A stretch of 64,000 bases of DNA, taken from contig CM037842.1 in NCBI GenBank assembly GCA_021234535.1, forward strand, positions 7,991,361 to 8,055,360. Reading direction: 5' to 3'. Positions 11,501 through 51,800 of this stretch are shown here, piece after piece (position 1 is the stretch's first letter; every line of letters begins with the position of its first letter). The notes below the pieces were generated by a model. The model was given only the letters and a program-made list of their open reading frames with translations, ran no database searches and was not told the DNA's origin. The position numbers and the translations under genes are program-made. Origin of the DNA: Stichopus chloronotus. Lineage: Eukaryota > Echinodermata > Holothuroidea > Aspidochirotida > Stichopodidae.

Positions 11501-12038
11501 CATAGGGTGATTTTGGTCCCTGTAATGGTGGGGCAGAATTTTTGTGTGGAGAACCCGACCTATGTATGGGAATTTCCGGGTCTGGATTCTTTCACCACTT
11601 ACACAGAGATTGACTGCCTCAGGCAGAAATTACACGCTTGGGCTGGCCAAGTAACTTTGGTCAATTACCTCTGCAATCTTAGCTGGGATATTGGTTACTC
11701 CATCAACACACAAGTAGGTCTGTTTCTAGGATGGTTATAAACTACATCCTATTTTGTGTTCTGCATGCTTTTCAATTAATTATGGTAAACCCTCTAAAAA
11801 TTTCCTTACTTTCTGTGCAGAAATAAGACAACAAACTGATAAGCGAAGGAGAACAAGGAAATTAAGTAAGAGCTTAGAAGATAAAGTTTCACGCCATTTC
11901 ACCCCTGTAGGGAGAAGGCTAGGGATGATGTTTATTGCCTAATTGTCCGTGAACTGGAAAGATGTTATCACAGTGAAGGTTGTTGGAGTGAAAAAAAAAA
12001 TCTTGCCCCATGACTACTGGGGACAGAATCACACTATG
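11501..12038 (+). mobile_element. CATAG-ended repeat, copy 1 (538 bp)
   Basis: First of three highly similar copies. The left end reads CATAGGGTGATTTTGGTCCC followed by TGTAATGGTGGGGCA. The right end, read inward on the other strand, is CATAGTGTGATTCTGTCCCC then AGTAGTCATGGGGCA. These are imperfect terminal inverted repeats of about 38 bp, so this looks like a MITE-type non-autonomous DNA transposon. A 77-codon frame lacking an ATG runs in from the left end in all three copies. Copies differ mostly at amino-acid-changing sites, which argues against protein selection. No convincing target duplication is visible (flanks ttggcag and gcaagta). Confidence 0.8.
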
Positions 12039-12039
12039 G

Positions 12040-13330
12040 CAAGTATCACAGCATCAGCACACTAATCCAACTTTTGTGTGAGTAATTAATCAAGGTTGTT
12101 ACCATCACTGTGACAAACAGAGATCACTTTCACATGATAGTGGCCACACTCTTGTCATCTTAGAAACTGTTTCGTGGGAAGTTTGAACATATCATGTTGC
12201 CCTATGAGAAGTTCATTTCAATTCTTCATGAATATGAATGAAAAAGGTTTGAAATGGCTTAAGTGAGTCAGAAGACCTGTTTGTCTTTGGAATTCAAGTT
12301 CTAAACAAGTGTACACTTGTGCAGCACTGCCTTCCAATCGCTTTACCATATGCATCTAGCAGAGCCATTACACTATGATTGATCATAGTTATGACAAGAG
12401 CCCAATATGGGCACTGTGGTGTCTCCATGAATGTTCCAAACTGAGCCCTCAAAATATTAATCCATGGTAGTTTTCCTGTGGCTCTGGTGACTGTTACGTG
12501 ACCCCCAAAACTGTTAATTACATCAAGTAAAGCTACCCTATAAAATTCATAGCTTGACCTCCCATGAACAGTAGCCTCTAATAATCTCTATAGTAAGTTT
12601 GGCTTTCATTTGTTGATGAAGTTACAATAAACCAAAGCAATGTCACCTGGCTAGTGGTAAGCCAAGCAGGAAATGGCGGTTCAAGCCCCAGCAGCAACCA
12701 ATGTGACAAAAACATACACATTCAACATTGGCTAGAAAAAAAAAGAAAAACAAGAGCCCAAGGCACTTTGATTTCTTGCATTAAGATGCTTTAACTTCAA
12801 AGGGAAGTAAGTTGTTTAGAAGATATCAAGATGGCATACAAAGAAAATAAGTTTAGTCATTGTATAACCATTCACTCTCATAAATAAACATTTGCAAAAG
12901 CTTCATCCCCTCGAAACTTTATGCATGTGATGATCGAGTAGCAGAAGATGGGTTATTTGACTTTGGAAAAATTTGGGTGAAAAAATTAGTCTTAAGTCAC
13001 AAATAACTGAATTTCTGTCTGTGAGAAACTTATTTCTTGAAAAGAAGGCTAGTTCTTTCTTATTTTGAATAATCTATCTTTCTGTGTCCATAAACATTGG
13101 TTTTAAAAATATAGTTTTCTGTAAAACAAACACCTTATATCCCTTTAAACCTAGCCTGAGATAAGGAGGTCAGAAATTGGCTGGGCACCTCTAAAAATCT
13201 AGATCATTTAGCCGCCTTACTATCACGTATCAAAGTTTGTTGATACCACGGAGTATTTTTTGGGGTGGGGGAGCTGGCAATGATCAATTGAGATTTATCT
13301 GGCCCTGATGATGTGCAAGTACTAAAAGCA
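12040..13330. other. Repeat fragments and unassigned sequence
   Basis: No gene was supported. Two partial matches to the start of the array-type element (AAGAGCCCAA...GGCACT) lie near 12395 and 12752, apparently truncated. Around 12648-12690 there is a tRNA-promoter-like pair (TGGCTAGTGG and GGTTCAAGCCCC) that is too close together for a tRNA and may be a SINE remnant. Confidence 0.35.
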
Positions 13331-13356: not shown

Positions 13357-13370
13357 GTAGTAGCATGTAC
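13357..13370. repeat. Possible left target-site duplication
   Basis: GTAGTAGCATGTAC abuts the left inverted terminus of the 13.4-22.2 kb interval. GTAGTAGCATGTGTAC abuts the right terminus at 22238-22253. The two differ only by an extra GT. The left copy lies at the end of a short GTA-rich microsatellite, so slippage is a possible alternative. Confidence 0.45.
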
Positions 13371-14036
13371 CCAAGTAGCATTCCCATATGGGTCCCATGT
13401 GGGACCCAGATCCACTACAATATGGGACCCATATGGGACCTCCCATATGGGCCCCAGCAGGTTTTGCACCCAAGACCCATGTGGGCCCCATATGGGTTAT
13501 CCCATATTAACCAAATGGGATCAATCTGGGGCCCGTTCGGGTCCCATCTGGGCTAGTAATATATGGGTAGAATATGGGTTACATTAGGGCTGTCCTTTAT
13601 GTAAGATACATGGGCTCCATATGGGGCCCATGTGGGTAAGTAGTTGCTGGGTTAAATATGGGAAATCCCATATGGGAGATATATGGGTTGTATCTGGGTT
13701 GGCTATCCATTCATATGGGCTACATATGGGGCCCATAGGGGCACTGATAATCCCATATGGGCAATGCATGGGTTTTATCTGGGCTGATAATACATGGACT
13801 GAATATGGCCCATATGGGAACATATGGGTTGCATATGGTGCCCATGTGGGTACGACTTGTGGGCTCAGTATGGGAAATCCCATATGGGCAACAAAATGGA
13901 TTCTATTTAGGTTCCCAATAAGTGGGTAAAATGTGGGCTGAAGATGGCATAATCCATATGGGGAACATATGGGCTCCGTATTGCGGTGCTGTTTTGGGTA
14001 CGAAGTATGTGGGCCAAATTGGTCTATCCCATACAT
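13371..14036 (+). repeat. Left CCCATATGGG array
   Basis: About 660 bp densely packed with perfect and one-mismatch copies of CCCATATGGG, interleaved with GGGCCCATGTGGGT-like variants. A higher-order period of roughly 120-140 bp is visible from repeating blocks such as TATGGGAAATCCCATATGGG near 13659 and 13869. The palindromic core CATATG is an E-box-type CANNTG. Reading frames on both strands across the array are by-products of the repeat. Confidence 0.9.
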
Positions 14037-14910
14037 GCATGAACTTCATGCTTTTTACTGGGGCTATATTCCGAATACTACCAATTTTTGGGATGAATTA
14101 AGTGTAAAATCAGTTTCACCATGCACCTAGGGATTCAGCAATAAACAGAACAGACACTCTGAAAATGAACATTTTAAGAATAACCTCACTAGAAGACATG
14201 TAAATCAAGGTTGCAAGAATGCTTTATTGTTGTTAATTTATTCCAACCTAACCAAAGAAAAAAAAATGCGATAGGAATTTATGAAATTGACCCATTCTAG
14301 AATACTAGAGCAGCAAGGTTACTTTACAATGGGGTACCCCACAGGGTGATGCTACTCATCCATTACATGTGTTTCCATCGCAACCATTCTCCCATGGGTA
14401 TACAGTCCAAGTTGTAGCCCTACTAGCAAAGTGCATGACTACAATATCTCATCTTTACCCCTGTAGGATGAGATAATAACCAAAAATGCTCAGTGCATGC
14501 ATGCATCTATTGCTGCTCAGTAGTAACAGAATTTGGGTAAAAACAAACGAATGTGTGACTAACAACTGAACGTTTCTTCAAATGAGTGCATGTCAACCCA
14601 TGGCATCCTCAAGAAACCACATACCATACAAATTCAATCTTCAATTTTAGGATGACATAACCCTCAATCATCTGCTAAGACATACCTTTCCCTGCATATT
14701 ATCAGGTTTTCTAAAAACAAATAGATAAATAAATAGATGTAGAAACAAAAAAACATTTACTTCTGTTTTTCCCACAAAAGTAGTTAGGTATATAACGAAG
14801 ACATTATTATATTAATTATTACAAGCATTATAAACGGCAAGTGTTGACACTTGACAGAACTTTTTTGCCTTACCGCTTAAGATGCCCCTTGCCTATTCGG
14901 CTTCATTTGT
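14037..14910. other. Unassigned interior of the putative transposon
   Basis: No coding exon, RNA gene or repeat array was recognised between the left CCCATATGGG array and the foldback element. Confidence 0.3.
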
Positions 14911-14913
14911 TAT

Positions 14914-15464
14914 AAGGATGGTCTAGCCACAAATTTAGCTTGACTATGTTGAAGAGTAAGTTTATCCAACCATTCTGGTGAAACTTCGATTCAGTTCCCA
15001 TGTGTGGTTCTCAAGATATTACCAGCTGAATTTACCCCCTTTGCAACCAACAGTGAACTTGAGGCAAATAGGAGTGACGTCATCTCCGCACATGGCTGAA
15101 TAGTCTTATGTTTTCTTTATTATTGAATTTCTTATTTTGACCTTGAAATCAATAAGCTTAGGTACTGGTTATGTGAAGGTCGCAAAACTCTCATAGCCCT
15201 CATACATTCGCATTATGATAGCACTAGATATTGAAGTATTAAATTTGAGTAAAGTTTAAAGAAAAACATAAAATGCTTTATCAATGTAAAGAGATGACAT
15301 CACTCCTGCTTGCTTCAAATCAACTGTTGGTAACAAATATGGCAACTCCAACTGCTCATATCTCACACATGGGAATTGAATGGAAGTTTCACTCTAATGG
15401 TCAGATTAACTTGCTCTACAACATATTTAAGCTATACTTGTGGCTAGACCATCCTTTTAAGAGT
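14914..15464. mobile_element. Foldback MITE, copy 1
   Basis: The left arm begins AAGGATGGTCTAGCCACAAA. The right arm, read on the other strand, begins AAGGATGGTCTAGCCACAAG. Similarity continues for nearly 200 bp inward on each side (shared blocks TTCCCATGTGTG, CAACAGT, GGAGTGACGTCATCTC), leaving a short central loop. A second copy of the same structure lies at 27472-28011. The flanks are TTAT on the left and TTAA on the right; copy 2 has TTAA on the left and GTAA on the right. This suggests a TTAA target duplication with one side decayed in each copy. The 86-codon frame at 15273-15533 is a by-product. Confidence 0.85.
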
Positions 15465-15733
15465 GTGAGTAATGACAGTAAAGACAGTATGATTTATCTA
15501 TTTCTACGATCTACACAGTTTTTCTTACATTAAAAGTAAATTTCAAGGTGTTCTTCATTTTTGATAATGCTCACTTTTAACTGTGGTTAAACTCTTGTCC
15601 AACTGATGGAGGTAGTTTGCACAAAGACTCTGCTAATTGTATTAGTCTATCCTCAAGATACATCGTGTAATAGATATGTCTATACATGTAGTTTTTGTTT
15701 TTAAACATAAAAATCAATTTGCAAAGTCTTAGT

Positions 15734-15893
15734 TTATAGTTCATTTTCATCCTGATCACCGTCTAATTCATCTTGGAGGACCTGTTGCCCGTTTGATCTT
15801 CTTTTCCGTCCTCCTTTCATGTCCCGTGCATTGTACAGGTATACTTTTTTACTTCATCTTGCGTTGCTTGTCCAGTCCTCGATTTCTGTCATA
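15734..15893 (-). pseudogene. DUF4806-like gene, C-terminal exon with in-frame TGA
   Basis: An acceptor (tttcaggtgcag) is followed, in the phase set by the exon at 16575-16729, by SMTEIEDWTSNAR and then TGA at 15854-15856. The same frame continues past the stop for 39 more codons (SKKVYLYNARDMKGGRKRRS, then an acidic tail) to TAA at 15734. The E-I-E-x-W-x-x-N-A-R pattern resembles the segment that usually follows the DUF4806 core, and the post-TGA stretch keeps a basic then acidic coding-like composition. Either the true end is the TGA, or a nonsense change truncated the tail. Confidence 0.45.
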
Positions 15894-16574
15894 CTGCACC
15901 TGAAAGTGAAGTCATCGGTGTCAATTTAAAATTACGCTGGAATTTTTTACTTGCATATACAAAAGTGTACAGCATCTCAGAATTATTCTATAAGGAACAT
16001 TTGTAATGAATCGCGTATTCGTATGCATGTCATTCCATGCAAAACCAACAAATTCCCTAAAAAATATTGGCTGGTCATCCTCTACAAACCAGGCAGAATT
16101 TAAGGAAGGAATTGTGGCAGGAATCACATTTCTTGAACAATCGACTGAGATCGAGGCAATTATAGTGACATAATTTAACAAACTGTATCTCACTAACTAC
16201 TTGTGTATTCCATTGTTTCCTGTTATTAGCACACAGATGTATCATGGAAAAGGTTTTCTACCACCTCGGAGATTAGCCAACCCATACTTTCTCTAAAAAC
16301 ACTCATGTTTGGCAATATACTTTCTGATCCTTGGCTGAATAAAACTATTCTTAACTGCACAAATATCCATTTACGAGCAGTAGATGGTCACCTTTGCTAC
16401 TAATGTTTCCCTACAAATACGAATATGACACCCTAATTTCTATCATAATTAATCAATCAGACATTTACACTGCGGACTGATACCTTTGTGATAACACGGT
16501 TTAGAGAAAATAATTCTGCAGATATATTAGTTGAAGTTAAATGCAAACTTTGTGTAAGTCAGGAATTCACTTAC

Positions 16575-16729
16575 GAAGTATAGCTGTATTGAGCTTTAAA
16601 GCCCGGAACTCTTTCTTTAGCTCCAGTCCAGTTATACTGGCACGCAACTTCCAGTGTCAGGATGTGTGAAAGTATTGCTTTCACAGTGGCGGGTACATCT
16701 GTACCCCAAAGAACACGGAGTTTCTGTAC
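16575..16729 (-). CDS. DUF4806-like core exon
   Basis: The exon runs from acceptor ttgcacag to donor gtaagtg, 155 bases, entering in phase 0 and leaving in phase 2. The peptide has VQKLRVLWGTDVPATVKAIL and, further on, LEVACQYNWTGAKERVPGF. The order (Leu-rich helix, small Gly turn, helix, then A-x-x-Y-N-W-x-G-x-K...F) matches the DUF4806 domain common in invertebrate proteins of unknown function. The family name is recalled, not searched. It is likely nuclear, by analogy only. It lies inside the putative large transposon; whether it is cargo, an element gene or a resident gene is open. Confidence 0.55.
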
Positions 16730-16839
16730 CTGTGCAATATAAAATGAAGTAGTAAAGGTAAGTAAACATTTTTTTTTTTTTTATCAGAAAAGGACAGCTT
16801 TCCAGAAACATGACCACTGTGAAGAAGAACACAACATGT

Positions 16840-19130
16840 TTTCTAGAAATTTTTAACTACATGTAAATTACTGTTGTGTAACATACATTTACTAAACTAA
16901 AAGCCTAATTCATATATTGATAAAGCCAGAAAACTGCCCATGAACATGGTTACTGTCTCAATGAAAGTGGCACATGGTTTTAACTTCCTGACATTTTTCA
17001 CGTTTCAGAAATAGCAGGAAGGACGATTGTCACAATTATTACTTAGGGGTTTGTATTGAGATGTATAACTGCGCAGTTTGAGATATATTCAGAGGAATAC
17101 AACTGTGAAACTATTAAAGTGTGCACATTTTTACAGAGGCAAACCATCTAGAGAAGCTATGGTCACAGGGAGGAAAGTTGTAAGAGGGTTATGGTAACCC
17201 CCAGAAAACAAAAGTGGGTATGCTGTGCACAGATTTTGTTTACAGAACTCTATAGTCTCATTAAACTTACAAAAGACACTTGGCTTTGTTATTATTTCTT
17301 TCATGTCAGTGAAAAATAAAATCTTACTGAATTGAGGATAATATTGTCTGGGGACTGGTCAAGATATCATGCAATGCAGGTTGGGAGGCCAGTGAGAGGG
17401 ATTAGCTTTAGGGGAATGCAATGAAAAGCTTTGGTGGATATATACTGTTCATTATGTGTAACAATAAGGTACTGTATGAATTAAAGTTTTTCTTATCCGC
17501 TCCTGGTGCAGCCTTACATTTTCAGCATGTTTTGGTAACTTGGTATGTAACACTCTTTTGAAGTATCACGAATGCAGTCAGAGCTGAAGCATGAATAATA
17601 CACTTCTGTTGTGCGGGCTAGTTGTAACATTACTCCCTTGAACATAGTCAGTCAATCCTCTATGCTGCATTCACGAATTAGGGTAAAAAGGCAAATGTAC
17701 TAGCTCGTCTACGGGTAGAGGGACTAATGCGCAACTGCTTAAACTATCAAAGTAAATATAGACTTCCCCCTCCTCCACCATCGATAACAGCTCACTCCTA
17801 ACTGTAACAACAATATACTATCATGCATTCAGTTAGCTAAAAAGGCAAAAATGGAGTCAAAATTAATCGAACTACAGTGTCGATAATTGATACATACTTT
17901 TCTAATGCTCTAAAAAAGCCACCCACACTCCCCATATTCAGATCCTCGATGTTTGTTACTACCTCCTGAATGTACACTAGCCTATATAGAAAACTACTTT
18001 TGCTTATACAATGTGAACGTGGTATTAAATGAGGCCAACCAAGATTTACAACATTACAGCAAAGTATTAATAAAATTCCCTAAGTTTGCTTGATACATAG
18101 CTTAAATTGAAAAAAAAAAAGATTGCTTTAGCAATAGCAGTAGTCAGTCAAAGGGAAGTGCAGAATGATTGTGTTATTTGGTTGACCTACTTTTGCCCCC
18201 CCCCCCCCCATAAATATCAAGGAAATCTGATTAATATAGCACATTAACATTTTCTACCTCCTTTTAACATATTTCATCATTCCGTAAAAGTAGTCATCCT
18301 TCACTTCAGTCTACAAACCAACGTACCACACACAACAGAGAGACTTCTATGCACACAGGTACCATTGATCTTTGACTTTTTAGCCAGCTCTAACATACAT
18401 CAAGTGTCAAATCAGAACAATTTACTTCTTAGCACTCAAATCTGCAAAAAATTTCCTCCCGGGAGATCTGAAATTTCAGGCTGTATAGGCAAATGGGTTT
18501 TTAATGTGAAAGTGTGGTTTACTTTCAGAACGTAGATGGGTTCATATATGGTGTTTTTTATGTATATTTTTTTCTATTTTCTGTAGAGACCCACACTCAT
18601 TTTCTAACACGTTGAATACTTATTCATACTGTAGGAGGTGGTATCGAAAGCACTCCTAGAAATTCTAGACATGTGGATCACATGGGGTCATATTGATCAA
18701 CCGCATGATGAAAAAAAAAGCTTATTTCTGACTACTAGGTATTCAAGGCGAACCAAAAAAAAAAGAAGGAAAAATAGAAAATACTAGAAACTGACAGAAT
18801 TATCATATGTTGTGGGTAAATGCAGGGAGGGGAGTGCCATTGAAGGCAAATGCTCTTTACCTCTGCACACACAGGAATGAGAGGATGCATGGAAATTCTC
18901 TTAAAGGCTGTATTGCATCACCCTAAGCTATATTTTTACCTCCCTGAAAGGAAAATTCTCAACTGGTTCTAAGTTACAGTACTCTTAGATTGCCAGCAAA
19001 TTCGAAAGATGCAGAGCAGCTCGTATCACACAGCGTACACAGGGATCCATTGTTTTGAATACACATGTGGAGGAATGTAGACAGGCTGAGGGAGGGACTA
19101 TAGAGGTAGGTGGTTGGGAGGATTGAAACT
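16840..19130. other. Unassigned interior, no exon supported
   Basis: This is where further N-terminal exons of the DUF4806-like gene would be expected on the minus strand. None could be supported by an open frame with paired splice sites. A poly-C tract of about 13 bases starts near 18197 and poly-A tracts lie near 18110 and 18710-18760. Confidence 0.3.
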
Positions 19131-19139
19131 GTCTGGAGT

Positions 19140-19734
19140 CATAGTGTGATTCTGTCCCCAGTAGTCATGGGGCAAGATTTTTTTTTCACTCCAACCTACC
19201 TTCACTGTGATAACATCTTTCCAGTTCATGGACAATTAGGCAATAACCATCATTGCTAGCCTTCTCCCTACAGGGGTAAAATGGTGTGAAACATTATCTT
19301 CTAAGCTCTAAGCTAACTGTAATTGTGTGCCTAGTCAACACTCACTTAAGCTGGGCCATGTATTCTTTTCTTTGTTTTGACAAATTCCTTGTTCTGCTTC
19401 TCTTATCAGTTTATTGTCTTATTTCTGCACAGAAAGTAAGGAAAGTTTGCCAAAATTAATTAAAAAACATGCAGAACACAAAATAGGATGTAGTCTATAA
19501 ACATCCTAGAAACAGACCTACTTGTGTGTTGATGGAGTAACCAATATCCCAGCTAAGATTGCAAAGGTAATTGACCAAAGTTACTGGGCCAGCCCAAGCG
19601 TGTAATTTCTGCCTGAGGCAGTCAATCTCTGTGTAAGTGGTGAAAGAATCCAGACCCGGAAATTCCCATACATAGGTCGGGTTCTCCACACAAAAATTCT
19701 GCCCCACCATTACAGGGACCAAAATCACCCTATG
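19140..19734 (-). mobile_element. CATAG-ended repeat, copy 2 (595 bp)
   Basis: Same element as at 11501-12038, in reverse orientation and nested in the putative large transposon. It carries about 60 extra bases around 19310-19380 that are absent from the other two copies. The termini and the ATG-less reading frame (19495-19728) are retained. The flanks (ggagt and tgatg) show no duplication. Confidence 0.8.
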
Positions 19735-19749
19735 TGATGCATTACAGCC

Positions 19750-20225
19750 TTTAAAGAAATCAGATTACAAATTAATATTTTAATTAAACAAGACTTATTT
19801 GAAATTAATGTTTGATTAAACAAGTTAATGATTTGGAATTAATATTTGGATTAACAAGTTGGTAACTTGACTAAATAAAGTAAAAATTTGATTACAGTAA
19901 ACAAATAAATAATTTGAGTAAAAATATAAATTTGAATAAAACAATTTGTTCGATCAAATAAGTTTTAAGCTGACTAAAGAAATTATGAATTTGATTACAG
20001 AAATAGTTAATTTGATTAAAAGTAACAATAATTGAAATTAATATTGGAGTACAGAAGTTAATCATGTGATTAAAGAAATTAGAAATTTAATTGCACAAAT
20101 TAATAATTTGAGTGAACAAATTCAAAATGGAGATAAAAAAATTAATTTAAGGAAAGTTTTAATTTGAATAATTAACAACTTGAAACATTTGATTGAAAAC
20201 TTAACAATTTCACTAAACATAAATC
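19750..20225. repeat. AT-rich degenerate minisatellite
   Basis: About 475 bp of diverged units of roughly 20-25 bp built on AATTTGATTAAA followed by AAATTAAT-like spacing. G and C are almost confined to the TTTGA/TTGA step. It starts just beyond the CATAG repeat copy 2. It could act as a matrix-attachment-like or replication-prone tract, but nothing in the sequence proves that. Confidence 0.75.
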
Positions 20226-20452
20226 TATCATAGATAGGTTGGCGGTATTACATGCAGTAGTTTTGTTGAAGATGTTTGTAGTCCCAGGGACTTTTTTTAG
20301 TCGCCATTGCGACCTTGGCTACCGGAATTGCATTGGGTGATTTTTATCAATTACACAATTCGTAATAATCGCAGGCTGAGACGTACGTGCAGTGTGCGCA
20401 ATAAATTAAAAACTAACATCGTTAGATTTTAAAGAAGAATTACAGAGCTTAC

Positions 20453-20620
20453 CTCCACTTGGTTCAGACTTGTAAGTGATTTCTTGCTTTTCTTGCTGAA
20501 ATTGTAGGAGTTTAACTTGCAGTATTTGCTCCAGTCCACATCTGTACGTGAGGCGGACTTAGCTATAATTCGTGGATGGTTCTTCTCATTCAAAACTGAC
20601 ACGATGATCACAATGAAGTT
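20453..20620 (-). CDS. Weak candidate upstream exon
   Basis: An open segment ends at a strong donor (GTGGAG|gtaagc). Its peptide includes FIVIIVSVLNEKNHPRIIAK and then DVDWSKYCKLNSYNF before a Lys/Ser-rich end. A strand, a variable region and a W-x-x-Y block loosely resemble the N-terminal portion of DUF4806 proteins. No in-frame ATG lies upstream before a TGA, and no clear acceptor was found, so it is uncertain. Confidence 0.25.
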
Positions 20621-21404
20621 GGTAAAGTTGCCTCACGGTGAGATGTAACGGCAAACCATGCATCGAATAATACGTGATATACTGTGTAAGCAAGTGTATG
20701 CACAATGGTACATACATACATGTACAGATGCTAACACTAGCACTGTACGTAGTGCATATACTGAGTAACTGCTAACCGCATTTATGAGTCACGATTTCTT
20801 TGAAATTGGCGGGCTGTTAGAATTTGCATACTATCATCGACTGATTTCTTTGTTCTTCAGATACGGGATACATTTGTTCAGTTATGTTGCCATGGCAAGC
20901 TCTTGCTGTTACGTTCTTGCAAAGGCAAAATTGGATCCATTTAAACCTATACATAATACGGGCATGGAGCTTGATATAGGGTAGTAGAAGCTCCTGGAGT
21001 ACACAGGCATTATTGTGTAGAGTTTGAAGTTGGTGGAGGCAGGGCTGTGTCCGGCTCATGTGTACTACTAGATCCACATGGTCGGGGTATAAATGGGTGG
21101 GTGGTGGGAAAGAGGGAGGTACAGCGGTACGGGGGCGTAGAGGAGAGATCAAAGGGAAGGGGTGACTGTTGGAATTAATGTAGGATGAGGGCCCGTATAG
21201 GGGAATTAGGGGATCAGGTGCACAGGAGATGTAAGAATGGAAGGTGATCGATATGATCAATTTGATAAGGAGTTGTAGGCCTGTGAATGCAGGGCTAAAG
21301 AAATATATAACAACAACATCTGGGCCTAGCTTTTATTGCCAAGTTATTTTCATTTTTGGAACTGATTGAACTATTTTTGAAATATACGAGCTGGGGCATA
21401 CAAC

Positions 21405-22237
21405 ACTTATATGGGTGTGCCCAGGTTATTTTAATACGATACCCATATTGGAATTAAGCCACATTGAACCCATACCTGATCTTTTCCCCCATATTGTTGA
21501 GACAGTCCACAGAAAACCTGTATGGGTTTGCCCAGGTAAGTCTGATATGATACCCATATTGGTTAACCCATATTGTACCCACATAGGTACCCCATGTTTA
21601 CCCCATATAAAGCCCGTATGGGCGGGACCACACAATACCTTTGGGGGTTTGCCCAGGTTATTCTAATATGATGCCCATATGTGTTAACCCATATTACACC
21701 CACATGTGGTATCCCGTGTTTACCCCATATAAAGCCCATATGGGCTGAACCACATAATGCCCATATGGGTACGCTCATATCATTCTAATATGATACCCAT
21801 ATGGGTTAACCCATATTGCACCCACATGGGGCAACCAATGTTTACCCCATATAAAGCCCATATGGGTTTCACCACATAATACCCATATGGGTAGGCCAGG
21901 TTGTTCTAATATGATACCCATATGGGTTAACCCATACTGTACCCACATGGGGCTATCCCATGTTTACCCCATATAAAACCCACATGGGTGAGCCCATATA
22001 CTCCCCATATGGGACAGCCCAGTGTAATCCCACGTGACACCCACATGGGTCAGCCCATATTGTGCCCACATACACTGGCCCAGATGGTGCCCATGTGGGA
22101 CCCATATGGGTCAGCCCTTGTAATTATTCTTGTAGGGTTTCCCATATTCAGCCCATAAGTGCCCCATATGGGTATATGGGTATTCCCAGATGGCCCAGGT
22201 AAATCCCACATGGGCCCCATATGGGAATGCTACCAGG
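21405..22237 (-). repeat. Right CCCATATGGG array
   Basis: About 830 bp packed with CCCATATGGG-type decamers, with a clear higher-order unit of about 120 bp. The anchor TAATATGATACCCATATGGG or close variants recurs near 21428, 21541, 21664, 21785 and 21906. The last 100 bp lose the period and become an inverted match of the left array's outer edge. Open frames here are repeat by-products. Confidence 0.9.
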
Positions 22238-22253
22238 GTAGTAGCATGTGTAC
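22238..22253. repeat. Possible right target-site duplication
   Basis: GTAGTAGCATGTGTAC directly follows the right inverted terminus and matches the left flank at 13357-13370 except for an added GT. Confidence 0.45.
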
Positions 22254-22790: not shown

Positions 22791-23331
22791 CATAGGGTGA
22801 TTTTGGTCCCTGTAATGGTGGGGCAGAATTTTTGTGTGGAGAACCCGACCTATGTATGGGAATTTCCGGGTCTGGATTCTTTCACCACTTACACAGAGAC
22901 TGACTGCCTCAGGCAGAAATTACACGCTTGGGCTGGCCCAGTAACTTCGGTCAATTACCACTGCAATCTTAGCTGGGATATTGGTTACTCCATCAACACA
23001 CAAGTAGGTCTGTTTCTGGATGTTTATAGTCTACATCCTAGTTTGTGTTCTGCATGCTTTTCAATTAATCATGGTAAACTCTCTTAAAATTTCCTCACTT
23101 TCTGTGCAGAAATAAGACAACAAACTGATAAGAGAAGCAGAACAAGGAATTTAAGTACTGTAAGAGCTTAGAAGCTAAAGTTTCACACCATTTCACCCCT
23201 GTGGGGAGAAGGCTAGGGATGATGTTTATTGCCTTATTGCCCATGAACTGGAAAGATGTTATCACAGTGAAGGTTGTTGGAGTGAAAAAAAAATCTTGCC
23301 CCATGACTACTGGGGACAGAATCACACTATG
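22791..23331 (+). mobile_element. CATAG-ended repeat, copy 3 (541 bp)
   Basis: Same element and orientation as copy 1, with an open frame extending to 96 codons. It lies about 540 bp outside the right edge of the putative large transposon. Substitutions relative to the other copies are scattered and change amino acids as often as not, so the frame is probably not maintained. The flanks (cactt and tgtag) show no duplication. Confidence 0.8.
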
Positions 23332-27375: not shown

Positions 27376-27471
27376 AAGGTCCAGAGTTATTAGGCCTAAT
27401 TAGATTTGTTCGACGATTAGGGTTTCATTTATTTGACGATTCGACTGGCACACAAAATTGTTAAATTAAAA

Positions 27472-28011
27472 GGATGGTCTGGTCACAAATATAGCTTTGA
27501 TACGTTAAAGAGTTAGTAAATCTGACCATTTTAGTGAAATTCCCATGTGTGGTTCCCGAGATATGAACTATTGAAGTTGCTACATTTATTAGTGACAGTT
27601 AACTTGAAGCAAGCAGGAGTGATGTCATCTCCCCACATTCATAAAGTATTTATGATTTTCTATCAAATAAACACCAAATTTAATACTTCAATATATTGGG
27701 ATATCATCATGTGAATGTAGGAGGGGTATGAGAGTTTTTTGACCTTCACGTGACCAGTATGTAGGCTGATCACCCACTGATTCCAAGGTCAAAATAATTA
27801 ATTTAAAAATGAAGAAAACAAAAGACTGTTTAGCAATGTGAAAAGATGATGTCATTTATGTTTGCTTCAAGTTCCCAGTTGGTAGCCAAGGGGGTAACTT
27901 CAACTGATAAAATAGTGAGAACCATGCAGGGAAACTGAATGGAAGTTTTACCTTAGGGTCAGGTTTACTTACTCTCAAAATATCAAAGCTAAATTTCCGG
28001 CTGGACTATCC
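27472..28011. mobile_element. Foldback MITE, copy 2
   Basis: The left end AAGGATGGTCTGGTCACAAA and the right end (other strand) AAGGATAGTCCAGCCGGAAA start two arms of close to 200 bp that match each other and the arms of the copy at 14914. The left flank is TTAA and the right flank GTAA. Several substitutions separate the two copies, so they are not a recent pair. Confidence 0.85.
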
Positions 28012-28019
28012 TTGTAAGT

Positions 28020-39800: not shown

Positions 39801-42800
39801 TTTGCTTATGTAACCTTAATTTCAAGGACATTTGAGAATTTTATATGCCCGGGGATTTTATGTTGGAAGCACATATTTTCTTCTTCACAAATATCTATAT
39901 CACTTACCGATGCAAACCTCTGTAATCTAGTAATTAAGAGGCAAAATATAGGCTTAACAACAGAAATACTGACACTGCAACACTCCATGTCATCTATTTC
40001 TCATTTTTCTCAACTTTTGAAAGGTTATATCTCAAAAATGGTACACAACATAAACAAAATTCTAACAGATTCTCACACAAGAGTTTTTCATGGCAGCTTC
40101 TGAATGAAGGGTGCTCTTTTGTAGAAGCATGTCACACAACCTTTAAATGCAAAATTTCATAAAAACCTGTGACCAAAGGTAGATACTGGTAATGTTCTTG
40201 CCAACATTGTACAGGCTGCTAGAAGCCATAACAAGTTCTTTCAATATCTTCACATACTCAGGCTATTAAAGGTACTTTTAAATTATGTGAAAAATCTGCT
40301 TTTTGTGGCCGCTAAGCTGACTCGTCAGAAAACATTTCCTACCTTCGGAAGTCATTGAGGGTGGCCAAGTTTGCATACATGTAGAATAGGTGGTAGGAAT
40401 ATGGCGGATTATCTGAGGTACTCCATCTGGACGGTTCCGGCGAGTCCTTGGTAAAGAGGTGTCCCTCTGGCTTAGATTCATCATCCACCGAATCAAAGCC
40501 GGTCACGTACTTCAGGAACTGGTGGAGCTCAGGGTGGGACGTGGGATCCCTGGTGACCTCAAACAGGGGAAGGAAGAAGTTCTCTAAGAGTTCACCAAAG
40601 TTTGAAATGAAATGGTTAGCATGATGGATGTTGTAAATCCTAGGTACTTGCACCAGCCACCTGATGTTGTCAGAATACACTTTGTTTTGTAATCCCCATT
40701 TGGCTAATTTGTCCCACTCGTCTCTACGGCGACCGTAGATGGAGATTCGATACTCTGCGTTCTGGTACTTGCTCTCCTCCAGGTCAGACGCAACTTCCTT
40801 AAGACAACAGACAGGAAAATCGAGTCAATATCATGTCATGCACAAGATAGCCAAGATATAGCCAACTACAAAACACCAATACCAAAATATACCAAACCAT
40901 GCTACCCCATACCATGTTGTATAAAACCATGATATACTGTAGTATACCAATACCATACCACACTACAACATACAATTTCATGCTGTGCTATACCATATTC
41001 AACAGAGACTAATAGCACACCGTACCGCACCCTTCAATTCCTCTCCATGCTACACCACATTAAACCATGCCAGACCAAACAATTCCACAGTATACCATGT
41101 CATACACTACAGAATGCCAATACCTAGTATCCTTCCTCCTCTCATACCATACCACACCATACCATACAACACCATACCATACCATACAATTAAAATCAAA
41201 CTACATCACACCATAACATACCACGCTACCCTACAGCATACCACATCATACCATCCAACACCATTCAACGTCATTTCATGAACCACACCATTCCACATAA
41301 TGCCATTACACCTGCATCATAACATGTCACACAATGCTAAACTGCTAACATACCGTACAAGCAACACGTACAATACAAGATAACAATGTGTCTCAGAGCT
41401 TCCAGAGCAGTGACATACTTGAAGACTATCGAGTGTTCTTACTTTACTCCTCATCACCTAACCTTAATTATTTCAGCAAAGTACCGGCCCTGGATGAAAT
41501 TATCAGTCTTGATGAATATCTCCCTCAGTTTACTCTCTCCCACCGGATTAAACTTTGTGTTGAAGTTATCAAACCTGTGAAACGTCTTGTTGTCCTGTTG
41601 CAGAATAAAGTGAAAAATGGATTATGGCAACATGTAAGTGTTACATATTTGTGAAATGTGAAAATGAAGTTATTGACATCGGAGGAAAGACAATAATCCA
41701 TTTCAATGTTTTCTATGACATTTTTTCTCCCCATTTTTGTTATGCCCTTGTTTGAGATGGGGAAGGAGATTGGTTCCACACATAATCATCTGGACTAGAA
41801 CTAGAATCAAGTTGAGGTTTTGTGACTGAATTGTTTTCACGGCTTTGTGACTCCTGAAAAATGCAAACCTTACTTCAAAGAAACATATGACTACAGTAAA
41901 GATATTCATAAAGAAAAACATAGTCAGTTACTGTTGAAATATCACTTACGGCATGAACATCAAGAGTATCCACGTTCAAATCATATGCCGTGAGATTCAA
42001 ACTTTCAAAGACCTGTTAAGATGAAAGAGACAGAAATAGCCTGCCCACTGTCGTCTCATCTCAGAACTTATTTAATAAAATATGGAAGCGAGAAAGAAGT
42101 TAGAGTTTCCCCAATCAGGACACCCTGCCAAGATCACCAGTCATTTTATGGTGTGGTCTCAAATCTTAACACTGCCACCAAAACAAACAGTGGTTTAAGG
42201 AAGGAAAGAAATGTGGCCAAGAAAGATTGAGAACTTCCAAACAGCTGCACTTGAAATTATTATATGTACATGCCAGTTTATCTAAAAGAAGGCTACCAGC
42301 TCCACCTAGGACTAACCCCAAACTGGCAAACACAAAGCACAGACGGTATACGTTGGAGTCCAGTCTTTACTATTTCTCAACTTCTCTTAACCCTCTATCT
42401 CAGTCAGCTTCACACCTTTCCTTCAGGAGATCAAGGAACGAAGGTTATGCTAGTGTCCTCTCGGCTGACAATTCAGTATGTGTACATAAGACCCATAATA
42501 ATAGACTCAAGCAGTGAAAAATTACAGAAGGGGTGATTTCGTGGCATGTTTAACTTGTCCTGGCATCTTCAGTGACTTTGCATGTAATGTGTCACAACCT
42601 TTTACGCTAACTTAAGATTAAAACTTATATACCGTACCTCTCCTAATGTGAGTGATGTCTTCTTTGTCTTGTCAAAGTAAACTTGAACATCTCTTTCTGT
42701 GTTCATCTTCTTCTTGATGAACTTCAGGAGATGTTTCTGAGTCATCCCACAGGCAACGTGGATGTGAGTGTCCACCTGCGGAGGAGATGAAGAAATATAG

Positions 42801-45800: not shown

Positions 45801-48800
45801 ATCCCATCATTAAATACTGTAAGATTCAACAGTTATCTGGCAAGTGCTTGAAATTACTGTGAGTGTGCAAAGGGTTCCGTGTTGACAGATCACGGATTTC
45901 TGGTGGTTAAAAACCTGTACGGTACATTTCAGAATAAAGTGGACGATAGTTGCGTTAATCGTTAGAAATTTGCATCGTTACTAATGTTAGTATTGAACCT
46001 GTAGTAACGCTGCTATCGATACTTTCGTGTACAAAGTCAATCGTTACTTGCCTTAGGGCTGTCAGTGTCAGCATATGTGTGTTTTGCCAAGTAACGATTA
46101 TATCGTTAGTTAGTCAACATAGCACACTGCGTCGGCTTCTCATGCACATCTAGTGCGTTCGTAACGCTACTTGCGATACATGCGTTAGGCTAGGTCAGTA
46201 AATCGGCATACTCCGATCCTCATAGATTGCGCGTGGTAAACAGAGACAGTTTGACTTTGTGGGAGCTCTTAATATCTCGCGCACTTATTGGTATCACACC
46301 CCACCACTAGAAGTACGTATTCCAGAAAGATTAGTATATGCATGATCAAAACTAGGGAAACCCCCGTACGTTGTGTGTACAAGCTATCGTCCAGAGAACT
46401 GCCAGGGAGGCACCTGTGCAAAACAAAAGAAAATTACCGACCTTCACTGTAAAATTACGACACACTTTTCCTAATAGCCAGACACGCTGGGTGGATCCAC
46501 GGCCTGTACTTTCCGACTCTTCTTCGCTGTACTTTTCGGCTTTCCGATACTGTAGGTCTTATGTTAAAATAAGTTCCAGAGGTTGCAAAAGTAAAACAAA
46601 CTTGTTTGCCCAAGAAGGTGTTGGAGACTGTAGCCGGTTTCCTGTACCGTGTCAAGTTCAAGAATGGGCACTGATTTACCACATTTACAGCCAACGTTTT
46701 GGCCGGTACTCTTTTATCTTTTTCATACTTTTCCGACAAAAGGCACGGCCCTGAGATATTGATCGGGCTGATCTCTTACAGGCTCACTAATCCTGTGAAG
46801 CCCCTCAACTTGCGCAATTCTCCACAAAAGAAACTGATCAGAAAAAAAGAAATGCATCCTTATTTTGGGGAATGGCGTGGATTCTCCACAGCAAAGCTTT
46901 AGAAATCGTCAACCTTTAATGTTCAAACAAACTTCATTAGATGTGTATCTATGAATATCACTTATTGTGGGTAAGAAACCTTTGATGTTTGCAAATGATT
47001 GCAAGATGTGCGATGTAGCAAAAGGCCAGACCAACATACATTAAATGCCAGGAAGTCAGTATCCAGTTGCCCAGCCTTTCCTCTTAATCACCATGGGGAC
47101 AACTTTAGTAAGATGATTAAGGTATCTTTGGCACTTCTCGGTGGTCACTTTTGTACTCCACAAGTCCAAAATGCCCTACTTCAACTCATCTTTTGTTCTT
47201 GGCTGCACTTCCTAGAAGGAAAACGGTATTTAAATTCAAATAGGCCTACCTGTTACTGTAACTGCTGTAAATATATACTTTAACAGGACTGTAAACCCAG
47301 CTTGTATTGACTACAAATACATGCTACCCATTACTGATCTGCTCGCTCCCTCCTATGTTTTTTTTTTTTTTTTTTTCAAGTGGTAGTAGTGGATAAATAG
47401 GTGCCTCAAATGTGGATGTTACAGGGGGTAAGACTGCTCTTACATGACGGTTTATCCCTGTCTCCCCCCCCCCCCATGTGGTGCAAACTTCAGACGATTC
47501 TAGAGGCATATACAAAAACCTCTTAAAATGCCCGTCACATTTTATTTACACATATAAGACTTCCTCCCACCCCTCGTAGGATCACTACCATATAATTTAC
47601 CACAGAAATATTTGACTGCATTTTGGTAAGCTTGCCCCCCCCCCCCCACCACCAAATTCAATGCTTCTACTGCCACACTGGTGCTGACTCATTTTGGATA
47701 GGCTACCTGTACCTACAGTACTTATCTACCCTAAGTATTTATACTAAACACCCTCCCAAGTTTCCATGGAAGTAGTCTTGTAGTAGTAAGTTTTGAAGAA
47801 TTGTTATAGAAATTACTTGTTGGCCATTTATACAGCATGCATTTTGAGAATTAACCATTTGTCAGTACAATAATAAGGCCCATAGCTAAACAAGTGGGGA
47901 GTGTGGGGATATTATACAGGGAAAATATTTTAGCTTACTTAACTAAGGGTTTAACAACACAAAAACACAGATGTGTTGTAAAGTGTCAGCTAGATAAAGT
48001 TGTAAAGTTCAAATATAGTTAAAGTTCAAATACTGTATGGTCCGCCCCTTTTAGTCACCTCTTACGACAGGCAGGGAGCCCTAACCATATTCAAACTGCA
48101 ACCCCTGCTCAAAAGGGGACACCCCACTCACAGGGTGCAAGACAAAAAGTTTTGAGGGTTAGGGGGTTCATCCCCATTCCCTTATACTGTGAGAGTTTAG
48201 AAAACTCTAATTCATTTCAGCTAAAATTACATAACCATGGTGATTCATATATATATCAATCTACAAAATGTTAGTCAAATTTGAATAGATTATAATCAGT
48301 TGGTCACAAATGAAAACTCATTTCAAGAAACTGTACAGTATGATACGGAACATGGGTCATATCATGTAATGCTCTGCAGTTGAAATAAAAAGTTCTACAA
48401 ACCTTTCAAAGATGATGTTTCATCTCATGCCAGACATTTTCAATGGGGTTGAGGTCTGGGGACTCACCTGGTGTTCACCACCAGTTGATTGAATTGTCCT
48501 GAAAGTGTTTCTTAACTAAATTACTAGTGTGCTTGGGATCATTGTCTTGCTGGAATCTGCATGTTTCTCCTTCCTTAAATGCTTTTTTAATAAATGGCAT
48601 AAGTGCTTTATCAATGGTTGTTGTATAGAAGTCAGCTTTCATGATCCCATCGAAAATACAAATGTCTGTCCTTCCCCTGTTTGAAATACCAGCCCACACA
48701 TGCAATTTCATAGGATGTTTTGCCTTCGGTTCGCCCAGATTTCTGAGTCGACATAAATTTTGTTTGTCTCTGCTAGGTGCGATTTCCAGAAAACCATTTT

Positions 48801-51800
48801 CGCATGACAGTCCAATTCGATTGATGATTCGTCTGAAAATATAACATCATTAGAGAATTCCTTCGTTAAAATACAACGAATCGCAAAGTCCAGTCGGCTT
48901 GCCTGATTGATCTGTCGAATTAATTGGCAGTAACGGGACTTTGTCTTTACCCAGCCTAGCCTTTTACGATATCTCTTAATTGACGATAGAGAAAATATCT
49001 CTCCAGCCTGAAGCTGCATCGCTTTTCGCAGGTCTACCGATGTCTCCTCATTATTTGCAATTAGAACTTGGTCGATTATGTCCATGTGCACAGTAGAAAA
49101 ATACAGTTTCCGACCTCGACCAGTTCTGTCCAAAATAGATTTATTTAAATTGTACCTCCGTAATAACGCATAAACACCTGATGTAGATGCTGGAATTCCA
49201 TCCGAAGAAAGAAGTTCCACAATTTCATTTACACTTTTGCCATGTCTTGAAATTTTGGTATTCTTCCTCTTAGGTTATACTTCATTTTTCCCATTGCTGT
49301 CACTCCAGAATGTACTACAGAATTAGCTAAATATGTTATCCTTATGTGAGAGATGACAGCTTGTTTTCTCCTGAAAGACGTGTGGAACCGAGGGAGTTTC
49401 CCTGGAGATTGGGTAGTGTTGTCAAAATAGCCGACTTCAAACAACTGCGCACTACAGTAGGCTAGACGACTTCTAACACTGTTCCACCCGCAGGTACCGT
49501 ACGTAGCACACCATATACTTTGCTATTGCTTACATATATATCTATATATACGCCAAGGCTACAGTCGACGTTATAAAAAATGTTCCGGTCTAACGCAGAT
49601 AACGCAAGTAAGGTTAGGAAAATCAGAGATTTACTGTAAACTAACGATAGCAGCGCTACTAACAGCACAGAAGCCCTCTAACTCAAGCAACCCAACTATC
49701 ATTAGAGAGAGCGAAACGTTACTAACGTTAGATTCTCTGTGCCCCATATTTTTCTAACGAGTAACGCAACTAATGTCCACTTCGTTCTGAGCTGTACTGT
49801 AGTAATGATCTGGTGACATTTTTCCTCTTCTTTGAAGTAAAGGACATTAACTTTCAAACACAGGTAAAATACTGATGAAAGAATGTACAGTACAATAGCA
49901 ACATAGCAAGCACTGGAGTAGTTCAAGGTGAAATCCTCTGAATGGACAACAATTAAATGAGTGATTCATTTTCCTTATAGAAGTTCTGACTGATCTTCAC
50001 ACATCAGCACCACTGATGGTATGGACAGGGGGCACGACACCCTGACAGCTGTTCCTTGAGAGGTGATGCAAGATTGAAAGGGCACCTGTGGAGTCTAGGT
50101 AAGTGACTTCCAGCAGTCTCAGGGGCATTTTTATCCAAACATTGTCTAGTAAGCACCACGCCAAGTGACGGTGGCACTCTGCTTAAATGGTCTTCCCACA
50201 ATTTTAGCTATCATGTAAGTGATGATAGGAGCCACCGCAGTTGAGATTCTGACTAACCCCCCAGGAAGAATGTACCTACACCACCCAAAACTTAATACAG
50301 TGTGATCAGTACTTGTTCAAAGTAGAAATGACAGTCCAGATTTCATTTAAAGACAATTTCTTAAAATCTCGCTTGTCATTAGTAGGGCTCACATGATCCT
50401 AAACTTACTCAAAGCATCCTCTGTAATACTGGACTTTCTATTAGTGGTTTCCTGTGGTTTTCCATCGACCCGGCGGAGGAACTTCGACGTATTCGGAGGG
50501 AAGGAGTGCATCGCCAACTTACAGAACTTCTCACGGATCAAAAGGGCCTGGACCAGGGATGAAGAGACACTGCTGAGATTATCTTCAGTCATCTGTCAAG
50601 GAAAGAGACACATACAACGAATACATAAATATATGACGTAAAGAAGTAACTGAAGAAGTATTCCTAGATATGTACTGAACAGTGTCAACTAAAATCAGTT
50701 CCATCTGGTTATACAAGAAACAAATAAATGGCAATACCTTAAAGTAATAAGTTCAACTACTGAATTTAATTCCCTATGTTGTTCACTTCCACTATCAAAA
50801 CTAATTAAATACAGACTCATTAACAGATTCTGGTACAGATACTACACAATTAACTTTCTTGATTCTTCAAATTGCTAATTACTGCATTGTCTGGGGGTGT
50901 CAACTTTGAAATAAATGTTGTTGACCTTCAGATAACTTTGATGCCAAGAATACCATAAAACCATTGGGGACTAAGACAATCACATATTTCTACACCATAA
51001 TTTGTTTTACTACTGATGGAAATATTATGTTGTAAACGGATAAATTAAGAAGATCAATACAATGTTTCCCCAAATAAAGGTCAACTTCAAGATTCTTTCG
51101 TAAGCTCACTGTAACTATTATTAATATTTTTTTTGGGGGGTGGGGGGTTGTTGGTGGAGTGATTAAATAGTCACAAAGCTTTGATGCAATTTAGGAAGTT
51201 CAATTGACAGGCCTTGAGTTTAAGATTTTCCAGATGAGCTACAAATCACACTCCTTAGGAAAGTGAGGAGTGTGGTAGGTGTGCTGTTTGTTAAACTGTA
51301 ACACATTCATCTTTGCGCCCTTCTTTATCTAGGTGTGCAAAAAATCGCACTCCTCACAGTGAATTGAGGCGAGTGTTGGTGTGCAATCGCACTCGCACGC
51401 CTCAGAATTCAAGGCCTGAATTGATAAATTTTAAAACAAAGCAATCAAGAGATCTATGCCTGTGGCTCCGATAAAGATTACTTACAGTAAGTAATCTCTC
51501 TTAAGATAAAATGAAATAAAACCTTTCTCTCAATACCTCCCACAAGACTATCTCCTTGAAAACATTTTCTGAAATTTTCTGAAATTATACTAGTATGCAC
51601 TGCTGGGTCAATTGTGCAGTTTACTGCATACATACCTTCTCACCTCTCTGGTATAAATTGGGATAAACTCAGGGCTAATTGAGCAGCTCTTTGACTATAC
51701 ATGTGAGGCTCTGAGCATTCTTGTAGGAATCACACAAATAATGCTGGTTAAAACAATTTGAAACTAAGAATTCAATTACTGTACTCATAATTCATACATT

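What the first reader, a model, noticed from the sequence alone, without database searches (positions are those of the whole stretch)
13371..22237. Possible new large DNA transposon with CCCATATGGG-array termini
Two arrays of the same palindrome lie in opposite orientation, their outer edges share an inverted terminus (TAGCATTCCCATATGGG...), and a 14-16 bp direct repeat flanks the pair. The enclosed 7.4 kb carries DUF4806-like exons but no transposase I recognise. Known DNA transposon superfamilies usually duplicate 2-10 bp, so a 14-16 bp duplication would be unusual.
Basis: partly seen in the sequence, partly recalled or inferred. Interest (0 to 1): 0.75.

Follow-up and report, generated by a model that had tools for sequence, protein, structure and literature searches.

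The report
Non-autonomous CACTA-type transposon with palindrome arrays
The two palindrome arrays are the ends of one 8.9 kb jumping DNA element with near-copies at eighteen other places in the same genome; its end sequences and 2-base target duplication place it in a known transposon group (animal CACTA/TRC elements), and the one gene remnant recognised in it may have coded for a DNA-binding protein of the kind that such elements use on their own ends.

Summary
In the 719 Mb source genome the exact terminus occurs 37 times (control 0). These give 19 loci, 16 of them 8.3-10.0 kb long, with shared interiors (13 full copies: 93.7-99.4% identical pairwise). The 14-16 bp "duplication" is a microsatellite accident: the target-site duplication is exactly 2 bp in 18 of 19 loci and 3 bp in none. 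Both ends (CCCAAGTAGCA, CCCTGGTAGCA) match the published Tribolium TRC terminus at 10 of 11 positions; CCC ends plus a 2-bp duplication mark animal TRC elements of the CACTA/EnSpm superfamily. The palindromes are subterminal repeats: about 35 and 42 half-sites ATATGGG, pointing inward from both ends, most often 11 bp apart. No transposase was found in any copy, so the family is taken as non-autonomous; three other loci in the genome carry Transposase_21 with long open frames. All 19 loci carry two exons of a DUF4806 gene, as do, at least in part, three older relatives, so it is a long-term resident. DUF4806 is reported to be a BEN-type DNA-binding domain, and BEN proteins bind palindromes. That it once bound these arrays, as TNPA does in plant CACTA elements, is my most novel, untested reading.

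The parts
13368..13369 (.). target-site duplication TA, left copy
   Evidence: TA/TA here; exact 2-bp duplication in 18 of 19 loci
13370..13404 (+). left terminus, CCCAAGTAGCATTCCCATATGGG..., left arm of the terminal inverted repeat
   Evidence: inverted repeat; same end in other copies; 10 of 11 with the Tribolium TRC terminus
13383..14013 (+). left subterminal array, about 35 half-sites ATATGGG within 1 mismatch, pointing inward
15636..15899 (-). last exon (E4) of the DUF4806 gene remnant, lower end approximate; broken in this copy
   Evidence: the exon is open over its whole length without gap in 6 of 19 loci (L018, L023, L026, L027, L033, C23:16.4M)
16575..16729 (-). DUF4806 core exon (E3), acceptor CAG and donor GTAAGT present; 5 nt shorter than in 14 of 19 loci
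17890..17965 (-). possible further exon (E2), uncertain; absent from 6 of 13 full copies
19142..19734 (.). younger MITE inserted in this copy (not part of the family); absent from the duplicate copy at C14:7962489
20453..20632 (-). possible 5' exon (E1) of the same gene remnant, open in the window copy, donor GTAAGC; no Pfam match of its own to DUF4806
21402..22225 (-). right subterminal array, about 42 half-sites in the opposite orientation; 61/122-bp higher-order repeat
22204..22238 (-). right terminus, reads CCCTGGTAGCATTCCCATATGGG... inward, right arm of the terminal inverted repeat
22239..22240 (.). target-site duplication TA, right copy

Best explanation
13370-22238 is a non-autonomous cut-and-paste transposon of the TRC branch of the CACTA/EnSpm superfamily. 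A Transposase_21-type transposase made elsewhere recognises the CCC...GGG inverted ends, cuts them out and joins them to a target cut with a 2-nt stagger, which gives a 2-bp duplication. The inverted arrays of CCCATATGGG and its half-sites are subterminal binding sites, which an accessory DNA-binding protein would occupy so that the two ends pair. Shown: ends, inverted arrays, 2-bp duplication, shared interior at 19 loci, no transposase recognised in the copies, Transposase_21 present in the genome. Inferred: which protein cuts, and what binds the arrays.
For: 37 exact termini, control 0, 30 of them in 15 inward pairs; 4 more copies recovered from the 7 single termini. Interiors shared; 13 full copies 93.7-99.4% identical in aligned columns. 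2-bp duplication exact in 17 of 19 loci as first paired (shuffled mean 3.6, maximum 11 in 20,000), 3 bp in 0 of 19; one of the two misses was a wrong pairing in a nested copy, whose outer ends are flanked by GA/GA, so 18 of 19, or 16 of 17 independent insertions. Animal TRCs in print: CCC core, 2-bp direct repeats, Tribolium terminus CCCTAGTAGCACCG...; both ends here match its first 11 bases at 10 positions. Repbase files non-autonomous elements by equal duplication length and at most 1 mismatch in positions 1-11. Array orientation kept in 18 of 18 copies tested, p 1.6e-8 to 2.7e-5 each, the copies being related. Three Transposase_21 loci over cut-off, open frames of 947, 760 and 474 aa.
Against: No copy shows a transposase (longest interior frame listed 171 aa in 15 copies; these frames were not all put through Pfam), and the nearest of the 94 terminus matches within 3 mismatches lies 0.96 Mb from a Transposase_21 locus, so the mobilising enzyme is not identified and the superfamily rests on ends and duplication length. 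A recent paper says that the wider CACTA-Mirage-Chapaev-Transib group has 5'-CA..TG-3' ends in most cases (PMC12730594 passage), which CCC...GGG is not. SmTRC1 itself showed the 2-bp repeat in only 7 of 14 copies. One locus (L019) has TA/TC. No two-sided empty site was found among the fetched loci.
Confidence: 0.86

Rival explanations
1. A Mutator-like or foldback element such as Muta1 of Aedes: long inverted ends built from a palindromic terminal motif and short tandem repeats.
For: [quoted passage not shown]
Against: Those make 8-10 bp duplications; here 3 bp or more match in 0 of 19 loci.
Confidence: 0.03
2. An undescribed DNA transposon superfamily that happens to have CCC ends and a 2-bp duplication.
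For: No transposase found in the 15 copies scanned; Transposase_21 loci not near matching ends; CCC is not the usual CA..TG of the group.
Against: 10 of 11 end match with a known TRC on both ends (chance 8e-6 for one end at one given register, not corrected for the choice of reference), same duplication length, same subterminal-repeat design.
Confidence: 0.08
3. Two independent short array elements that flank an ordinary host gene by chance.
For: Three terminus matches (on C4, C9, C12) have no recognisable partner end within 20 kb.
Against: 19 loci carry both ends round a shared interior, with a 2-bp duplication outside the pair.
Confidence: 0.01
4. The DUF4806 gene is a captured host gene and plays no part in transposition (Pack-type cargo). 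This concerns the cargo and is compatible with the best explanation.
For: Changes between recent copies are close to neutral (106 at 485 non-synonymous against 44 at 133 synonymous sites, ratio 0.66; changes per site 0.19, 0.19 and 0.31 in the exons against 0.21 and 0.23 in two intron stretches); stops and frame-shifts in several copies; four exon-like copies on C5 have no recognisable end near them.
Against: Three older relatives carry the gene with a terminus match in the expected order; dN/dS against L026 is 0.53 (C3) and 0.35 (C14) in two of them, 52 and 38 codons, and 0.23-0.68 in the four C5 pieces, too few codons to be firm; the third relative was not measured.
Confidence: 0.5

Closest known systems
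TRC element of Tribolium castaneum (CACTA superfamily; PMC1636069, passages)
   Same: Terminus CCCTAGTAGCA, 10 of 11 with each end here; 2-bp direct repeats
   Different: About 5.2 kb, found as a transposase-bearing element, 27-bp inverted repeat; no palindrome array mentioned in the passages seen
SmTRC1 of Schistosoma mansoni (PMC1636069, passages)
   Same: CCC ends, 2-bp direct repeats, a tandem-repeat region
   Different: 54-bp inverted repeat of other sequence, encodes Transposase_21; 2-bp repeat in 7 of 14 copies
Spongebob_HMa / EnSpm-4N1_HM of Hydra (PMC4298943, passages)
   Same: CCC ends, 2-bp duplication, no intact transposase
   Different: 5.8 kb; no arrays or DUF4806 mentioned in the passages seen
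Plant CACTA elements En/Spm and Tgmt* (PMC2613891, passages)
   Same: Subterminal repeated motifs bound by an accessory protein (TNPA), said not to be homologous between families
   Different: CACTA ends, 3-bp duplication (Tgmt*), different motif
Muta1, Mutator-like foldback element of Aedes (PMC5225508, passages)
   Same: Palindromic terminal motif plus 12-bp subterminal repeats
   Different: 8-9 bp duplication, Mutator-type transposase

Membership tests
CACTA/EnSpm, TRC branch | Inverted ends with CCC core | tested here: met
   CCC at both ends in 19 of 19 loci; the search itself asked for the 17 bases just inside, not for CCC. Criterion from passages of PMC1636069
CACTA/EnSpm, TRC branch | First 11 bases within 1 mismatch of a known member with equal duplication length (Repbase rule for non-autonomous elements) | tested here: met
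   10 of 11 for both ends against the Tribolium TRC; rule
CACTA/EnSpm, TRC branch | 2-bp target-site duplication | tested here: met
   17 of 19 as first paired, 18 of 19 after correcting the nested copy
CACTA/EnSpm, TRC branch | Repeated subterminal motifs | tested here: met
   18 of 18 copies tested (the fused L031_32 left out)
CACTA/EnSpm, TRC branch | Encodes Transposase_21 (defines autonomous members only) | tested here: not met
   No long frame in the 15 copies scanned; the 3 PF02992 loci lie outside all copies. Hence filed as non-autonomous, for which Repbase uses ends and duplication
CACTA/EnSpm, TRC branch | Moved in trans by that transposase | not testable with these tools
   needs an excision/insertion assay
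CACTA-Mirage-Chapaev-Transib group at large | 5'-CA..TG-3' ends (said to hold in most cases) | tested here: not met
   CCC...GGG here; passage. TRC elements differ from the group in this respect
Mutator/foldback (MULE) | 8-10 bp target-site duplication | tested here: not met
   0 of 19 loci match at 3 bp or more
Mutator/foldback (MULE) | Long inverted ends made of subrepeats | tested here: met
Tc1/mariner | TA duplication only (recalled) | tested here: not met
   TA, AA, TT, AC, GT, CC, AT, TC, GA all occur

The most novel reading that the evidence does not exclude
The DUF4806 protein is this lineage's own TNPA: a BEN-type DNA-binding protein, encoded in the element, that bound the inward-pointing CCCATATGGG arrays, often spaced by one turn of the helix, and assembled the two ends for a TRC transposase. 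This would give an animal CACTA lineage a named array-binding partner and might explain why DUF4806 genes are expanded in some animal genomes such as Hydra.
Probability: 0.2. Interest if true: 0.65.

Novelty: new member of a known kind. Interest (0 to 1): 0.38.

Why it matters
It settles a striking structure as a transposon family and shows how a single locus can mislead on target-site duplication. If the novel reading holds, it names a candidate for the protein that reads subterminal arrays in animal CACTA elements, and gives a domain of unknown function a job that a gel-shift assay can test.

Tried and rejected
A Mutator/foldback reading looked best from the window alone (8- or 10-bp flanking match; passages on Muta1 and Tetris) and was dropped when the copies showed 2 bp. 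The two bacterial/archaeal contigs with the terminus 17-mer each hold a single CCCATATGGG and are taken as chance. Seven IMG/VR contigs with three ATATGGG at 11-bp period hold short tandem repeats; a pattern of the terminus had no match in that collection, so they are taken as unrelated. My early view that the DUF4806 gene was dead in all copies was wrong: it rested on the frame and lengths of the window copy; E3 and E4 join in frame in L026 and are open in several others. Pfam PF16064 against the genome gave 0 matches at E 0.001, a weak test, since the control genomes gave none either; a protein query gave 62 exon matches at E 10 or less, the last ten or so at chance level. Sequence comparison with solved structures gave nothing (1 match, E 0.76). 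Terminus matches near the Transposase_21 loci were looked for in the list: none. A paper search for the palindrome itself gave 34 papers, of which the 10 listed have titles on other matters. The species was not determined.
Full report
What is there. The window is eukaryotic (AMP deaminase exon at 40339-40824, E 5.6e-75) and lies at C14:7991361-8055360 of a 719 Mb genome in 267 contigs; I do not know the species. CCCATATGGG, within one mismatch, occurs 41 times in 64 kb against 1.4 expected, 36 of them in two blocks at 13383-13962 and 21442-22225. The outer edges form an inverted repeat of 37 nt at 92%. Outside full palindromes the half-site ATATGGG points inward on both sides (19 to 3 on the left, 3 to 22 on the right; p 2.6e-7). 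The right block has a 122-bp higher-order repeat, seen also at 61 bp.

Copies. The exact terminus TAGCATTCCCATATGGG occurs 37 times in the genome and never in the reversed control. 30 of the 37 form 15 inward pairs, 4.8-13.3 kb apart, the window's among them. I fetched the other 14 pairs and 20 kb inward of each of the 7 single matches. Four of the 7 proved to be copies with one mutated end; three (C4, C9, C12) have no recognisable partner within 20 kb. That makes 19 loci, 16 of them 8.3-10.0 kb long, the others 4.8, 13.3 and 14.6 kb. Interiors are shared: 84-90% of the window copy is covered by each of the 12 other full-length copies, 54% by the short copy L029 and 64% by L031_32; among the 13 full copies the coverage is 80-100%. 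In aligned columns these 13 are 93.7-99.4% identical, median 94.9%. The other four also align to two reference copies over most of their length. Two pairs are single insertions seen twice through segmental duplication: the window copy and C14:7962489 (99.4% identical, flanks included, inverted), and L020 and L021_22 (the 30 flanking bases shown on each side are identical). So there are 17 independent insertions.

Target-site duplication. Aligned at CCC...GGG, the flanks match at exactly 2 bp in 17 of 19 loci; a shuffle of right flanks gives 3.6 on average and at most 11 in 20,000; a 3-bp match occurs in 0 of 19. One of the two misses, L031_32, is a nested case. The relaxed terminus search found a CCCTGG end (1 mismatch) 5.2 kb further on (C23:21826042), and the two bases after it are GA, as before the left end; so the outer copy has GA/GA, and the count is 18 of 19, or 16 of 17 independent. 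The remaining miss is L019 (TA/TC). The inner copy of the nest lies at GGCG-GT-AACATGCAG of the outer copy's interior, a site that the five copies looked at show unoccupied; its far side is lost in an inverted fusion. Nine different duplications occur: TA in 5 and AA in 4 of the 16, the others (TT, AC, GT, CC, AT, TC, GA) once each, so no fixed target is needed, though A+T may be favoured. The window's longer flanking match, 12 bp exact, sits in a simple repeat and is accidental.

Class. Passages of DeMarco et al. 2006 (PMC1636069) describe animal elements related to CACTA (TRC) with CCC as core of the inverted repeat and 2-bp direct repeats; the Tribolium terminus printed there is CCCTAGTAGCACCGAATATTTGTAAAA. 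The ends here, CCCAAGTAGCA and CCCTGGTAGCA, each match its first 11 bases at 10 positions. Passages of PMC4455052 give Repbase's rule for non-autonomous elements: equal duplication length and at most one mismatch in positions 1-11. Spongebob of Hydra was filed as TRC on its CCC ends and 2-bp duplication (PMC4298943 passages). Against: a passage of PMC12730594 says that the wider group has CA..TG ends in most cases. Subterminal repeats are a CACTA trait, bound in plants by TNPA-type proteins that are not homologous between families (PMC2613891 passages). No transposase-like open frame was seen in the 15 copies listed (longest interior frame 171 aa), but not every frame was put through Pfam. The genome has three Transposase_21 loci over the cut-off (none in 14 control genomes), so a mover is plausible, but the nearest terminus match within 3 mismatches is 0.96 Mb from one of them, and I could not read their surroundings.

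Arrays. In 18 of 18 copies tested the inward orientation bias holds (p 1.6e-8 to 2.7e-5; the copies are related, so these are not independent; the fused L031_32 was left out). Of 1360 spacings between successive inward half-sites in these copies, 556 are 11 bp and 210 are 14 bp. That two in five sites follow the last one at about a turn of the helix suggests bound protein on one face; this is inference.

The gene. Exons of a DUF4806 gene lie on the minus strand, with splice signals. In the window copy it is damaged. In L026 the exons E3 and E4 join in frame; the spliced piece matches PF16064 at E 9e-4, 20 bits, under the cut-off of 25. E3 and E4 sequences are present in 19 of 19 loci, E1 in 17; E4 is open throughout, without gaps, in 6 of 19. 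Changes among copies are nearly neutral (ratio 0.66), and 6 of 13 full copies lack E2, if it is an exon. A protein search gives 62 exon matches. Outside the 19 loci, three older relatives (C3:5563933, C14:497103, C23:26529269, the last with two stops) have E4 66%, 73% and 58% identical, with a terminus match 3.7, 5.3 and 11.7 kb away in the orientation expected; the end type fits at C14 (CCCTGG), roughly at C23 (TCTTGG, 3 mismatches in all) and neither type exactly at C3 (CCCAGG). Four C5 matches have no end nearby. Against L026, dN/dS is 0.53 (C3) and 0.35 (C14), and 0.23-0.68 in the four C5 pieces, two and two near-duplicates, on 36-52 codons each: too few for certainty; the C23 relative was not measured. 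The gene is thus an old resident of the lineage, less clearly a needed one.

Novel reading. [quoted passage not shown] BEN proteins bind palindromes: ACATGT for NAC1, CCAATTGG for Insv and Elba1, though NAC2 is said to bind a non-palindromic site (PMC7764960 passages). A palindrome-binding domain inside an element whose ends are palindrome arrays suggests a TNPA-like role. This is inference; no binding was shown. My searches for the domain name (4 papers, two seen in one passage each; with 'sponge', none) and for BEN with CACTA/EnSpm (10 of 81 listed, none of the 10 holding 'BEN domain') found no such report; that is a narrow search. DUF4806 is expanded in two Hydra species (69 and 54 genes against 0-6 in the five other species of the table; PMC7642931 passage).

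Noticed in passing
window 1074-22332 against C14:7962395-7982394: An inverted duplicate of this part of the window lies just left of it, 97.9-99.4% identical: a large palindrome or an assembly artefact.
   Followed up: partly
window 11501-12042, 19142-19734, 22791-23331: A MITE family about 93-95% identical, ends like CATAGNGTGATT; the first two are absent from the inverted duplicate, so they moved recently. One site there is clean, the other holds six further bases that look like an excision footprint.
   Followed up: partly
window about 18907-19750: Insertion of about 845 bp against the other full copies; without the MITE inside it about 250 bp remain, which the duplicate copy shares. By eye its two edges are an inverted repeat, so it may be a second MITE with the first nested in it.
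   Followed up: no
window 14910-15460 and 27466-28017: A fold-back repeat inside the element, 77% identical to a second place in the window; the same fold-back shows in other copies.
   Followed up: no
genome-wide, e.g. C18:18557840-18575744: A related end, CCCAGGTAACATTCCAACATGGG, is exact in 19 of the 94 relaxed matches; two overlapping 9-kb pairs with similar ends lie on C18. Probably sister families; no DUF4806 match there.
   Followed up: no
L003-L009 (IMG/VR contigs): Seven viral contigs carry three or four ATATGGG at exact 11-bp period; possibly a binding-site array unrelated to this element.
   Followed up: no
window 48475-49274: Two overlapping frames that look like a broken Tc1/mariner-type transposase (recalled; Pfam gave no match).
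   Followed up: no
C9:18373942 (L038): A lone array end lies a few hundred bases before what reads like the first exon of an RPA-interacting-protein gene (recalled likeness; sequence).
   Followed up: no
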